Of a DNA stretch of 10,196 nucleotides, positions 108 to 7,007 are shown piece by piece. This DNA comes from Alphaproteobacteria bacterium (GTDB lineage Bacteria; Pseudomonadota; Alphaproteobacteria; Rhizobiales; Xanthobacteraceae). How positions within the stretch are numbered: the first letter of the stretch is position 1; each line of letters begins with the position of its first letter. The DNA is taken from NCBI GenBank assembly GCA_005884465.1, contig VAZH01000100.1, positions 1 to 10,196 of the forward strand, written 5' to 3'. A program made the position numbers and the translations under genes. The notes beneath the pieces are model-generated. The model worked only from the letters and a program-made list of their open reading frames with translations, had not been told where the DNA came from and did no database searches.

Positions 108-2647
<2,540 letters not shown>

Positions 2648-3561
2648 ATGATCACGCTTCGACAACTTCGTTATCTCTCCGCGCTCGCCAAACATGGCCA
2701 TTTCGGCCGCGCCGCCGAGGCCTGCGCCGTGACCCAGCCCGCCCTGTCCATGCAGATTCGCGACCTGGAGCGGACCCTCGGCGTCGCGGTGGTGGAGCGG
2801 CGGCCGGGCGATGTGATGCTGACCGATGTCGGGCGCGAAATCGCGCGGCGGGCCGAGGACGTGCTGACGGCATCGCGCGACCTGGTCGACTTCGCCCGTC
2901 AACGCAGCGGGCTGCTCACCGGCCGGCTGACGCTCGGGGTGATTCCATCGCTGGCGCCCTATCTGCTGCCGCGCATTCTCCCGCTGCTGCAGACAAGGTT
3001 TCCGGAATTGCGGCTGGAGTTGCGGGAAACCCAGACCAGGCAACTTGTCGAGGACATCAGGAGCGGCGCGCTCGACGCGGCGATGCTCGCACTGCCGGTC
3101 ACCGAGCCGGACGTCGATACGATTGCCCTGTTCGAGGATCTGTTTCTGCTGGCGGTGCCCGCGAACGATCCGCGTCAGGAGAACGTGCGGGTGGCCGCGG
3201 AGGATATCGATCCGGCCACTGCCTGCGCGATCAGGCGCTGGCATTTTGCGCGACCGCGGCGCGGGGCCGCGCCACCGCCGCCGGCGGGACCGTGTTCGGC
3301 GCCAGCAGCCTGAATACGGTGATGCAGATCGTCGCGGGCGGCTATGGCGTCACCCTGATTCCGCAGATCGCCGCCGACGTCGAGCGGCGCGACGAACGGG
3401 TGAAATTCCTGCGCCTGGAAAATCCGCAACCCGGTCGCAGCATTGGCCTCGTGTTCCGCCGCACCTCGCCGCGCAAGGCGGATTTTGCCGCGTTGGGAGA
3501 GGTGGTGAAGGAAAGTGTGGATATTTCGCCGGCGAGAATCGCGAGCAAGAAGCGTAACTGA
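2648..3561 (+). pseudogene. oxyR: oxyR (LysR-type peroxide sensor), frameshifted by a 25 bp deletion
   Basis: LysR-type regulator remnant, clearly OxyR. The N-terminal part starts MITLRQLRYLSALAKHGHF with a helix-turn-helix at about residues 15-40 (FGRAAEACAVTQPALSMQI), then the OxyR-like effector-domain start GVIPSLAPYLLPRILPLL and RETQTRQLVEDIRSGALD. Translation in this frame leaves the family sequence after ...EDIDPAT (3219) and stops at 3313. From 3220 a second frame resumes with CLRDQALAFC, the two redox cysteines (E. coli Cys199/Cys208), and runs to the stop at 3561 through GVTLIPQIAADVE and PQPGRSIGLVFRR. The eight residues normally before the first Cys (LLLLEEGH-like) are missing. Restoring 25 nt gives about 312 residues with the first Cys near 200, normal for OxyR. 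ATG 2648 fits the family N-terminus; ATG 2642 or TTG 2618 are alternatives, and none has a strong ribosome-binding site. The N-terminal fragment alone would be about 221 residues and would lack the sensing cysteines. Confidence 0.9.
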
Positions 3562-3638: not shown

Positions 3639-4385
3639 TCACACGCCCAGCGTGCCTGCCTTGGCGGCGGCATAGCGCTCGGCGACCTTGTTCCAGTTCA
3701 CGGTATTCCACCAAGCCTTGAGGTAATCGGCGCGGCGGTTCTGGTAATTGAGATAGTAAGCGTGTTCCCAGACGTCGTTGCCCATGAGCACGCGCTTGCC
3801 GTCCATGATCGGAGTGTCCTGGTTCGGGCGGGTCTCGATCGCGAGCTTGCCGTCCTTGGTGACGGTTACGAACACCCAGCCCGAACCGAACTGGCGTCCG
3901 CCGGCGGCGTCGAAGTCGGTCTGGAATTTTTCCATTCCGCCGAGATCGCGATCGATCGCCGCCAGCACCTCGCCTTCGGGCTTGCCGCCGTTCGGTCCCA
4001 TGATCTCCCAGAACATGGTGTGGTTGGCGTGGCCGCCGAGATTGTTGCGCACCGCGAATTTGATGTCGTCGCTCAGCGCGTTCAGGTTGCCGAGCACATC
4101 TTCCACGGCCCTCGCTCCGAGCTGCTGCGGATTGGTCTTGGCGAGGTTGTTGAGATTGGCGACATAGGCCCCATGGTGCTTGTCGTGGTGGATTTCCATG
4201 GTCCTGGCGTCGATGTGCGGCTCGAACGCATTGGTCGGGTAGGGGAGCGGCGGCACCACGAATGGGCCGGTCGGGGCTGTCGGCGCGGCGGTCGACGCCT
4301 GGGCGAACACAATGCGCGGCGTGGACGCGGCAGCCGCCAAGCCTGCGGCCGCGCTGAAAAAATGACGGCGCGATAATGAGGACAT
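3639..4385 (-). CDS. Tat-exported superoxide dismutase, Mn-type of the Fe/Mn family
   Basis: Converts superoxide to H2O2 and O2. The 248-residue product has an N-terminal twin-arginine signal: SRRHFF (residues 5-10), a hydrophobic AAAGLAAAA stretch and a probable cut after FAQA (about 30). It is therefore expected to fold with its metal in the cytoplasm and be exported to the periplasm. The mature part is a complete Fe/Mn SOD. Metal ligands by alignment with E. coli SODs are His66, His122 (NHTMFW), Asp204 and His208 (DVWEHAYY). Gly118 replaces the Fe-type Gln69, and Gln189 (PNQDTP) matches the Mn-type Gln146, so Mn or cambialistic use is favoured over strict Fe use. ATG 4385 is preceded by AAGGAGGG (4398-4391) with a 5-nt spacer, a very strong site. 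The gene is convergent with the oxyR remnant and close to katG, suiting an oxidative-stress role. Confidence 0.95.
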   Translation of the reverse strand: MSSLSRRHFFSAAAGLAAAASTPRIVFAQASTAAPTAPTGPFVVPPLPYPTNAFEPHIDARTMEIHHDKHHGAYVANLNNLAKTNPQQLGARAVEDVLGNLNALSDDIKFAVRNNLGGHANHTMFWEIMGPNGGKPEGEVLAAIDRDLGGMEKFQTDFDAAGGRQFGSGWVFVTVTKDGKLAIETRPNQDTPIMDGKRVLMGNDVWEHAYYLNYQNRRADYLKAWWNTVNWNKVAERYAAAKAGTLGV

Positions 4386-4592: not shown

Positions 4593-6746
4593 TTACTCGC
4601 CGGCGGCTTCGCGCGGCGCGGGCTCGGCCTTCTGCTTGGCCTCAAGATCCTCGCCGGTGACCTGATCGACGGCCTTCATCGACAGCCGCGTCTTGCCGCG
4701 ATCGTCGAAGCCGAGCAGCTTCACCTTGACCTTGTCGCCTTCCTTGACGACGTCGGAGGTCTTCTGCACGCGGTTGGCCGCGAGCTGGCTGATGTGCACC
4801 AGCCCGTCCTTGGCGCCGAAGAAGTTCACGAACGCGCCGAATTCCATCACCTTGACGACGGTGCCATCATAGATCTGGCCGACTTCCGGATCGGAGGCGA
4901 TCGATTTGATCCACTTGATCGCGGCCTTGATCGATTCGCCGTCGGCAGAGGCGACCTTCACGGTGCCGTCGTCGTCGATATTGACCTTGGCGCCGGTCTT
5001 CTCGACGATTTCACGGATCACCTTGCCGCCGGTGCCGATCACTTCGCGGATCTTGTCGGTGGCAATCTTGAAGGTCTCGATGCGCGGCGCGTATTCGCCG
5101 AGTTCGGCGCGCGCGGCGTTCAGGGCCTTGGACATTTCGCCGAGAATATGGATGCGCCCTTCCTTGGCCTGGCCGAGCGCGACCCGCATGATCTCCTCGG
5201 TGATCCCGGCGATCTTGATGTCCATCTGCAGCGAGGTGATGCCGTGATCGGTGCCGGCCACCTTGAAGTCCATGTCGCCGAGATGATCCTCGTCACCGAG
5301 GATGTCCGAGAGAACGGCAAAGCGCGAACCCTCCAGGATGAGGCCCATGGCGATGCCCGCGGTCGGCCGCTTTAGCGGAACGCCCGCATCCATCAGCGCC
5401 AATGAGGCGCCGCAGACCGAAGCCATCGACGACGATCCGTTGGACTCGGTGATCTCCGAGACTACACGCACGGTATAGGGGAATTCGTGGTGGGGCGGCA
5501 GCACCGGGTGGATCGCGCGCCAGGCCAGTTTGCCATGGCCGATCTCGCGGCGCTTGGTGCCGCCAAGCCGCCCGGTCTCACCGACCGAGTAGGGAGGGAA
5601 GTTGTAGTGCAGCAGGAATGTCTCTTTGTACGTTCCCGACAGCGCATCGACATATTGCTCGTCCTCGCCGGTGCCGAGCGTGGTCACCACCAAGCCCTGG
5701 GTTTCGCCGCGGGTGAACAGCGCCGAGCCATGGGCACGGGGCAATACGCCGACCTCGGCGATGATGTTGCGGACCGTCTTTGCGTCGCGGCCGTCGATGC
5801 GCTTGCCGGTGTCGAGAATGTTCCAGCGAACGATCTTGGCTTCCAGCTCCTTGAACACGCCGGCGATGCGCTGCTTGTCGTATTTTGGCTCCTGGCCTTC
5901 CGGAAAATAGTGCGCCATCACTTTTTCTTTGGCCTTGCCGACCGCGTTATGGCGCTCCTGCTTGTTTGGAATCGCATACGCGGCGCGCAGGTCCTGCTCG
6001 ATCAGGGCGAGGATTTCCTTTTCCAGCGCGCTTTCGTCGACGACCGCGACTTCGCGCGGCTCCTTCGCGGCCTTTTCGGCGAGTTCGATGATCGCCTTGA
6101 TCACGGGCTGGAAATGCCGGTGCCCGAACATCACGGCGCCGAGCATGATGTCTTCGTTGAGTTCCTTGGCCTCCGATTCCACCATCAGCACGGCGTCGGC
6201 GGTGCCGGCGACGACCAGGTCGAGCTGGGATTCGGCCATTTCGTCGAGCGTCGGATTGAGCACGTATTCGTCGTTGACGAAGCCGACGCGGGCCGCGCCG
6301 ATCGGACCTTTGAAGGGCGCGCCGGACAGCGTCAGCGCCGCGGACGCAGCCACCATCGCAAGAATGTCGGGATCGTTCTCCATGTCGTGCGACAGCGTCG
6401 TAATGATCACCTGGGTCTCGTTGCGCCAGCCATCGACAAACAGCGGGCGGATCGGACGGTCGATCAGACGGGAGACCAGTGTCTCCTTTTCGGTCGGTCG
6501 GCCTTCGCGTTTGAAATAGCCGCCGGGAATTCGGCCCGCAGCGTAGGTTTTTTCCTGATAGTCGACGGTCAGCGGCAGGAAGTCGACGCCTTCGCGGGGC
6601 GTCTTCGCGGCGACGACGGTGGCGAGCACGACGGTCTCGCCGTAGGTGGCAAGCACGGCGCCGTCGGCCTGACGGGCGATTTTTCCTGTTTCAAGCTTGA
6701 GGGGACGTCCACCCCAGTCGATCTCGACTGAATGAATATTGAACAT
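4593..6746 (-). CDS. pnp: polyribonucleotide nucleotidyltransferase (PNPase)
   Basis: Phosphorolytic 3'-to-5' exoribonuclease that also adds 3' tails; acts as a trimer and commonly with RNase E in RNA decay. The 717-residue length is normal. In order: a first RNase PH domain (about 10-140) ending in the helical linker region; a second RNase PH domain (about 310-540) with the phosphate/RNA-binding [10 protein letters not shown] (396-405), [12 protein letters not shown] and the catalytic Asp487, Asp493 and Lys495 ([12 protein letters not shown], equivalent to E. coli Asp486, Asp492, Lys494); a KH domain (about 555-615) with the GTGG loop in [14 protein letters not shown]; an S1 domain (about 622-692, [20 protein letters not shown]); and a short charged tail. 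The start at ATG 6746 gives the family N-terminus [16 protein letters not shown]. The ribosome-binding site is a modest AAGAAGA. pnp is separated from rpsO by a terminator and a structured leader, so it probably has its own promoter. Confidence 0.99.
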
Positions 6747-7007
6747 AGTGGTCTTCTTTCATGGTTTCACGAAAGCAGGGACCCTTCAAAACGCAAAAAC
6801 CATGCGCAAGATGGCGGGACGCTGATTGCGATGAAGTCGCAGACTCAGCGCCCGGCGATCCTGCCATGGTCTTTATGTTTCGAATGGCGTCCATCCTTCC
6901 GATGGTACGGGCATCTTGCCCGTTACGCCCAGCTGCCGGATTGCTGCTGGACGTTCTTTGCGCACGATCGTTTTCGAAAACCTCAACAATGGTTTTACGG
7001 ATCATGC
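6747..7007 (-). promoter_or_regulatory. structured 5' leader and promoter region of pnp
   Basis: Between the rpsO terminator and the pnp start. Three stem-loops are visible. (1) 6815-6854: an interrupted stem of about 15 bp (CGGG, bulge, CGCTGA, internal loop, TGCGA around a 5-nt loop). (2) 6891-6905: CCATC-N5-GATGG. (3) 6904-6926: GTA-CGGGCA-TCT-TGCCCG-T-TAC, with 6907-6923 a perfect 7-bp stem. A 12-bp palindrome GTTTTCGAAAAC lies at 6970-6981. In E. coli the pnp leader folds into a stem cut by RNase III and then used by PNPase to repress its own synthesis; a similar role here is inferred from position and structure only. No clear -35/-10 pair was found. A frame on the minus strand (7005-6691) crosses this region and overlaps the pnp start, but looks non-coding. 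Confidence 0.5.

What the first reader, a model, noticed from the sequence alone, without database searches (positions are those of the whole stretch)
3190..3330. oxyR is inactivated by an apparent 25 bp slippage deletion directly in front of the first redox cysteine
Seen: the OxyR frame runs to GAT CCG GCC AC, and at 3220 the CLRDQALAFC motif resumes in another frame. Known: OxyR proteins have a stretch like LLLLEEGH just before this Cys. If those residues were coded as ACC (Thr), then four Leu, two Glu, GGC CAC, the intact gene would carry GGCCAC twice, exactly 25 nt apart. Loss of one copy plus the intervening bases leaves precisely what is seen (CCGGCCACTGC). This points to a natural slippage deletion rather than a homopolymer read error. 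It removes peroxide sensing while katG and the SOD gene next door remain intact.
Basis: partly seen in the sequence, partly recalled or inferred. Interest (0 to 1): 0.72.

Follow-up and report, generated by a model that had tools for sequence, protein, structure and literature searches.

The report
Broken oxyR copy, probably not fixed
In one fragmentary soil-bacterium genome the gene for the peroxide sensor OxyR lacks 25 letters and is out of frame, but a nearly identical intact version exists, the proposed cause does not fit, and it may be an assembly error, so this is an ordinary broken gene copy.

Summary
The break is real in the given sequence. The oxyR frame starting at 2648 is lost at 3212/3213, just before the first redox cysteine (TGC, 3220). 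All 82 relatives covering the site read through it; the window is 25 nt short. It lies in a 678-contig, 70.9%-complete Bradyrhizobium-group assembly.

The proposed 6-bp slippage is not supported. Close relatives encode DIDQSRLILLEDGHC here; the second GGCCAC copy is present in 0 of 82, and the best single junction has no flanking repeat.

A near-identical intact protein exists (P0002, 298 of 302 compared residues). P0001, also near-identical, has a different deletion starting next to the same spot; P0166 looks like a chimera joined there. Another gene of this assembly lacks 32 nt internally. dN/dS of both halves lies within the range of intact relatives.

So this is a private, very recent or artefactual break, not a fixed trait: artefact about 0.5, natural blunt end-joining about 0.4 (two Ku genes present). 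No second OxyR or PerR was found in the assembled part. An LsrB-like LysR beside trxB is intact but lacks the two cysteines reported as conserved in LsrB.

The parts
108..2309 (-). katG, catalase-peroxidase, intact 733 aa, divergent from oxyR
   Evidence: ORF; NCBIfam catalase/peroxidase 1286.7 bits (cut-off 981); found beside oxyR in 33 of 34 relatives tabulated (not in L069)
2581..2643 (+). conserved operator-like block upstream of oxyR, intact in the window
   Evidence: alignment of the window with 10 relatives; by eye the last ~60 nt before oxyR are the most conserved stretch. Binding of OxyR or LsrB here is inference
2648..3211 (+). oxyR codons 1-188: HTH domain and first part of the regulatory domain, in frame
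   Evidence: best NCBIfam match OxyR NF008361, 159.7 bits, below its cut-off of 329; intact P0002 also stays below it, 262.1; 93% identical to L039
3212..3213 (+). breakpoint: net 25 nt absent compared with the relatives; no flanking direct repeat in the single-event reading
3213..3313 (+). out-of-frame tail of the truncated product, stop at 3311-3313
3217..3561 (+). rest of oxyR from His-Cys (first redox Cys 3220-3222) to the stop, in another frame from the N-terminal part
3292..3561 (+). 89-aa C-terminal open frame from GTG 3292; an identical 89-aa protein heads a database cluster whose longest contig is 4586 nt
   Evidence: P0165: 5 member sequences at 90% clustering, 2 contigs
3639..4385 (-). 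Fe/Mn superoxide dismutase with a Tat-like N-terminus, intact
   Evidence: best matches are SOD [Mn] 204.4 and SOD [Fe] 165.6 bits, both below their cut-offs; Tat-like by eye, not tested
4593..6746 (-). pnp, intact; conserved neighbour
   Evidence: gene name from recall

Best explanation
The window carries a private, out-of-frame 25-nt loss inside an otherwise well-kept oxyR, present in one fragmentary genome consensus and not a fixed trait of the organism. Shown: the frame is lost at 3212/3213, before both redox cysteines; the 82 covering relatives are intact; a near-identical intact protein exists; no decay is seen elsewhere in the gene. Inferred: the leading origin is an assembly or library artefact (about 0.5), because near-identical copies break in other ways at the same spot and another gene of this assembly has a similar 32-nt loss. 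The next origin is a very recent natural deletion by blunt end-joining (about 0.4, given below as a rival although it is a sub-case of 'private and recent'). If real, the product is a 221-aa stub with the DNA-binding domain and no peroxide switch; katG would then lose OxyR-dependent induction, as reported for rhizobial oxyR mutants (PMC8226930 passages; PMC11975290).
For: 25 nt missing against relatives; 82 of 82 covering relatives open. P0002 is intact with 186 of 188 N-part and 112 of 114 C-part residues identical; the next listed full-length protein is 94% identical to P0002. P0001 has the same 186 of 188 N part but a different, in-frame loss of 36 residues starting directly after His-Cys. 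P0166 has a C part 113 of 114 identical, preceded by a foreign-looking N part up to LILLEDGHC. Of the 120 proteins listed, 8 depart from full-length alignment by my thresholds, and 7 of these departures start at residues 187-217 (P0006, one of the 7, may simply end at a contig edge). A 32-nt net loss splits an ABC ATPase gene on C612, against 9 of 9 aligned relatives. Mean pairwise dN/dS of the window is 0.105 (N part) and 0.260 (C part), against 0.076-0.149 and 0.195-0.383 for 11 intact relatives. Assembly: 678 contigs, 70.9% complete.
Against: No reads could be seen. A blunt junction is hard to make by k-mer assembly without a read that spans it (general knowledge). The other seven genes in the window (katG, SOD, pnp, rpsO, truB, rbfA and the part of infB present; last five named from recall) have open frames. 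Only two split pairs were seen among 169 family matches in this genome, so the assembly is not riddled with breaks, and such a rate may also fit ordinary pseudogenes. In the two families also run on G151 and G099, neither they (0 of 93 matches; one internal TAG) nor the own genome (0 of 31) showed a split pair, so that control does not separate the readings. The C612 loss lies about 500 nt from a contig end. An identical 89-aa C-terminal fragment occurs on other contigs, which could mean that the same allele exists elsewhere. P0002 differs by four residues, so it is a sister strain, not proof for this strain. The 120-protein survey is biased: the query was itself truncated after residue 188, so N-terminal lesions would rank lower.
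Confidence: 0.8

Rival explanations
1. A real, very recent natural deletion made by end-joining without a repeat, private to this strain. OxyR is lost, and katG is left to other control. (Sub-case of the best explanation, natural rather than artefact.)
For: Two Ku genes with open frames in this genome; junction without flanking repeat; a 25-nt loss is not a usual platform error (general knowledge); neighbouring genes open; dN/dS inside the intact range fits a very young loss; identical C-terminal fragment P0165 on other contigs.
Against: Intact near-identical P0002; two other differing breaks at the same place in near-identical proteins; no read support available.
Confidence: 0.4
2. Slippage between two GGCCAC copies 25 nt apart.
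For: Net size of 25 nt is right; the right-hand GGCCAC is present in 28 of 82 relatives and in the window.
Against: Left copy in 0 of 82 relatives; P0002 encodes Q-S-R there, which no codon choice turns into the needed letters. A weaker form remains: a 20-nt loss between two CGGC copies plus a separate 5-nt loss (aligner output for L010), which needs two events.
Confidence: 0.04
3. The gene is still made whole by programmed frameshifting, or the two frames are separate conserved genes.
For: Both halves remain conserved.
Against: No relative has the same two-frame layout (0 of 82). Eight residues before the cysteine that relatives keep would still be missing, and a very young or artefactual lesion also explains the conservation.
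Confidence: 0.02

Closest known systems
Rhizobial OxyR divergent from katG (PMC11975290, sections read)
   Same: Same gene order, LysR HTH, two-cysteine switch in intact relatives, conserved intergenic block
   Different: The window copy is out of frame before both cysteines
Natural oxyR pseudogenes such as that of Mycobacterium tuberculosis (recalled; not taken from a call)
   Same: Peroxide regulator broken while a catalase-peroxidase gene remains
   Different: Here one private 25-nt loss in one assembly, with an intact near-identical copy; no fixed or repeated decay shown
Spurious pseudogenes from assembly (PMC11017572; abstract and Discussion read)
   Same: Frameshifted gene in a fragmentary assembly, near-identical intact copy elsewhere
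   Different: That study did not assess MAGs, and a blunt 25-nt loss is not a one-base error

Membership tests
OxyR (LysR-type peroxide sensor) | LysR HTH plus LysR substrate domain | tested here: met
   substrate domain hit in two pieces; OxyR is the best NCBIfam match of P0121 and of P0002, though both are below that model's cut-off (329 bits); one search lists both Pfam domains for P0001 and P0002
OxyR (LysR-type peroxide sensor) | Two redox cysteines nine residues apart, in frame with the HTH | tested here: not met
   both cysteines lie in another frame in the window; present in frame in P0002
OxyR (LysR-type peroxide sensor) | Divergent from katG with a conserved intergenic block | tested here: met
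Pseudogene | Frame disrupted compared with orthologues | tested here: met
   82 of 82 covering relatives open, window not
Pseudogene | Disruption present in the organism's DNA (reads) | not testable with these tools
   no reads available; near-identical intact P0002 exists
Pseudogene | Relaxed selection after the loss | tested here: not met
   dN/dS of both halves within the range of 11 intact relatives; a very young loss would look the same
Replication-slippage deletion | Direct repeat flanking the lost segment, one copy left | tested here: not met
   left GGCCAC in 0 of 82 relatives; unique breakpoint for 22 of 25 relatives
LsrB (second redox LysR of Rhizobiales) | LysR gene adjacent to trxB | tested here: met
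   G000 C433: TrxB 6001-6909 (over cut-off) followed by a LysR gene
LsrB (second redox LysR of Rhizobiales) | Conserved cysteines C144 and C273 | tested here: not met
   alignment to 9hh1_A, taken as Agrobacterium LsrB because its cysteines count to 144, 236, 244 and 273 as in PMC11975290 (the call names it only 'Transcriptional regulator, LysR family'): the own protein has V at 144 and 273, A at 244, C at 236

The most novel reading that the evidence does not exclude
A free-living Bradyrhizobium population is losing its only OxyR through repeated, independent deletions at one spot next to the redox cysteine (the window, P0001), while katG, its operator and the SOD gene stay intact. katG control would pass to an LsrB-like regulator that itself lacks the usual cysteine pair.
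Probability: 0.1. Interest if true: 0.5.

Novelty: new member of a known kind. Interest (0 to 1): 0.14.

Why it matters
Mostly as a caution: a broken regulator in one fragmentary assembly is weak evidence for lost peroxide sensing when a near-identical intact copy and other breaks at the same spot are on record. If reads proved the deletion, it would be a case of very recent loss of the only OxyR found in this genome, in a soil relative of the rhizobia, with katG kept.

Tried and rejected
GGCCAC slippage: rejected. A strong DNA hairpin as the cause: folding of one window stretch (101 nt) and three relatives' stretches (141 nt) gave z-scores of -0.60, -0.16, -1.68 and -0.28, not unusual. Assembly-graph tangle at a shared stretch: in the window's own gene, 21-, 25- and 31-mers shared with 33 relatives do not peak at the junction. 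With five intact relatives as reference, 25-mers around the lost stretch were shared more than the gene average in 5 of 5 (only slightly in L041), and 31-mers in 4 of 5. This is suggestive only, since a tangle alone does not make a blunt junction. Second OxyR: none; the other listed LysR matches to P0002 in the own genome are 22-31% identical. PerR: of the two Fur-family genes one is Irr (over cut-off), the other best matches Zur below that model's cut-off, and PerR models match both below cut-off. OhrR and other sensors were not searched. G161's partial oxyR is cut by its contig end; its second match was not looked at. Another LysR fragment (C386, no HTH seen in the stretch read) stays unexplained. 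In-print check: searches (15 of 29 papers listed; 15 of 88; 10 of 19; 8 of 12) showed no title or abstract start on an oxyR loss in Bradyrhizobium; one search was for assembly artefacts (10 of 55 listed). Beyond listings I saw PMC7038661 (abstract, section 9), PMC11017572 (abstract, Discussion), PMC11975290 (abstract, two sections, passages) and PMC8226930 (passages).

Full report
What the window is. The window is contig C340 (1-10196) of a 3.83-Mb, 678-contig genome with 70.9% completeness. Its closest named relatives by oxyR are Bradyrhizobium MAGs. Genes: katG (108-2309, -), oxyR (from 2648, +), a superoxide dismutase (3639-4385, -), then pnp, rpsO, truB, rbfA and part of infB (ORFs; these last five names are from recall). 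katG lies beside oxyR in 33 of 34 relatives tabulated; the order katG-oxyR-SOD-pnp is seen in part of them, some loci being too short to tell.

The break. The frame from ATG 2648 follows OxyR for 188 codons (to 3211) and then runs out of frame to a stop at 3311-3313, giving 221 aa. The rest, from His-Cys, lies in another frame at 3217-3561. The window is 25 nt short: 569 nt from the start to His-Cys, against 594 nt in each of 33 relatives measured, and a net 25-nt gap at the site against L010 and L012. Of 83 relative loci examined, L082 ends before the site; the other 82 are all open across it, 81 of them distinct in the 90-nt zone. Allowing one 25-nt cut, the best breakpoint is 3212/3213 in all 25 relatives of at least 80% identity, uniquely in 22 (L010 and L046 are the same sequence). 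In a scan of 146 genomes of the genus, own included, 143 had an OxyR-like match at E <= 1e-60. Thirteen others list one of at least 82% identity, each in one open frame, two of them (G069, G161) cut by contig ends (the list of matches was cut short). The own gene appears in two pieces.

The proposed slippage fails. Close relatives read DIDQSRLILLEDGHC, with variants; LLLLEEGH is found only further out. The right-hand GGCCAC occurs in 28 of 82 and the left-hand copy in 0 of 82. The near-identical intact protein P0002 also has Q-S-R there. As a single event the junction has no flanking repeat. A two-step reading (20 nt between short CGGC copies plus 5 nt) is possible, as the aligner gave for L010, but is not needed.

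Is it real? Against a fixed loss: P0002 is intact and differs from the window by 2 of 188 N-part and 2 of 114 C-part residues. It is the only near-identical full-length protein listed, the next being 94% identical to it. P0001 has the same N part but a different in-frame loss of 36 residues that starts right after His-Cys. P0166 has the C part preceded by what looks like another protein's N part up to LILLEDGHC. Among the 120 proteins listed, 8 depart from full-length alignment by my thresholds, and 7 of these start at residues 187-217. That survey leans towards lesions after residue 188, because the query was truncated there, and one of the 7 (P0006) may simply end at a contig edge. In the same genome an ABC ATPase gene on C612 lacks 32 nt against 9 of 9 aligned relatives (3 of the 12 genomes searched gave only weaker matches and were not aligned); it lies about 500 nt from a contig end. 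Among 169 family matches in this genome (19 LysR, 111 ABC, 8 thiolase, 27 AMP-binding, 4 aldehyde dehydrogenase) I saw by eye two split pairs, oxyR and C612; not every partial match was checked for a contig end. As a control, two of these families in G151 and G099 gave 93 matches with no split pair and one internal TAG, but the own genome also had none in those families (0 of 31), so this control does not decide. For a real loss: the other genes of the window are open; a blunt junction is not easily made in silico; two Ku genes are present, so end-joining is possible (recalled biology); and an 89-aa protein identical to the C-terminal open frame heads a cluster of 5 member sequences on 2 contigs, the longest 4586 nt, which may be the same or another break. 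I cannot separate these without reads.

Age. Mean pairwise dN/dS of the window is 0.105 in the N part and 0.260 in the C part, inside the ranges of 11 intact relatives (0.076-0.149 and 0.195-0.383). The operator-like block at about 2581-2643 is kept as in 10 relatives. The loss is either very young or not real.

Consequences if real. The stub keeps the DNA-binding domain and loses both redox cysteines. No second OxyR was found (other listed LysR matches are 22-31% identical). Of the two Fur-family genes, one is Irr (over cut-off) and the other best matches Zur below its cut-off; neither reaches a PerR cut-off. These are statements about the assembled part only, 71% complete. A LysR gene directly behind trxB on C433 has its best solved match in 9hh1_A (E 6e-105), which I take to be Agrobacterium LsrB because its cysteines count to 144, 236, 244 and 273. 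In Agrobacterium, LsrB binds between katG and oxyR and activates katG along with OxyR (PMC11975290, section read). The own protein has V at the positions of C144 and C273, A at C244 and C at C236, so its peroxide sensing by that route is doubtful. 'Peroxide sensing is removed' is therefore an inference, not shown.

Comparison with print. Changes in oxyR around the redox site are known from laboratory evolution and similar changes from E. coli isolates (PMC7038661, abstract and section 9), but these favour the active form rather than remove it. Spurious pseudogenes from assembly are documented, though that study did not assess MAGs (PMC11017572, abstract and Discussion).

Verdict. It is an ordinary broken gene copy of low interest unless reads prove it.

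Noticed in passing
G000 contig C612:5510-5541 (L146): An ABC transporter ATPase gene is split by a net 32-nt internal loss against 9 of 9 aligned relatives; same style as the oxyR break.
   Followed up: partly
G000 contig C433:6001-7850 (L121): A trxB-LysR pair like Agrobacterium trxB-lsrB, but the LysR protein lacks the equivalents of C144, C244 and C273.
   Followed up: partly
window 2581-2643: Highly conserved block before oxyR containing GATCAG-TTTAT-CTGAT, a likely LysR-type operator (function inferred).
   Followed up: partly
genus scan: The best listed OxyR match of most Bradyrhizobium genomes is only 46-58% identical; the form in the window (82% or more identical) was listed in 13 of the 145 other genomes.
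   Followed up: no
P0174, P0180, P0184, P0201: C-terminal OxyR fragments occur on contigs of 106 kb to 1.1 Mb; the first three start at the GTG equivalent to 3292, P0201 further upstream. Broken or split oxyR calls are thus not rare in public assemblies; indel errors in long-read assemblies are a possible cause (inference).
   Followed up: no
G000 contig C386 (L131): A LysR substrate-domain fragment in mid-contig without an HTH seen in the stretch read.
   Followed up: partly
G006:C4:373644-374188: A relative's third Ku gene looks broken: two adjacent pieces, the second with two internal stops.
   Followed up: no
window 3639-4385: The SOD begins with a Tat-like signal (SRRHFFSAAAGLAAAASTPRIVFAQ), suggesting export; read by eye, not tested.
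   Followed up: no
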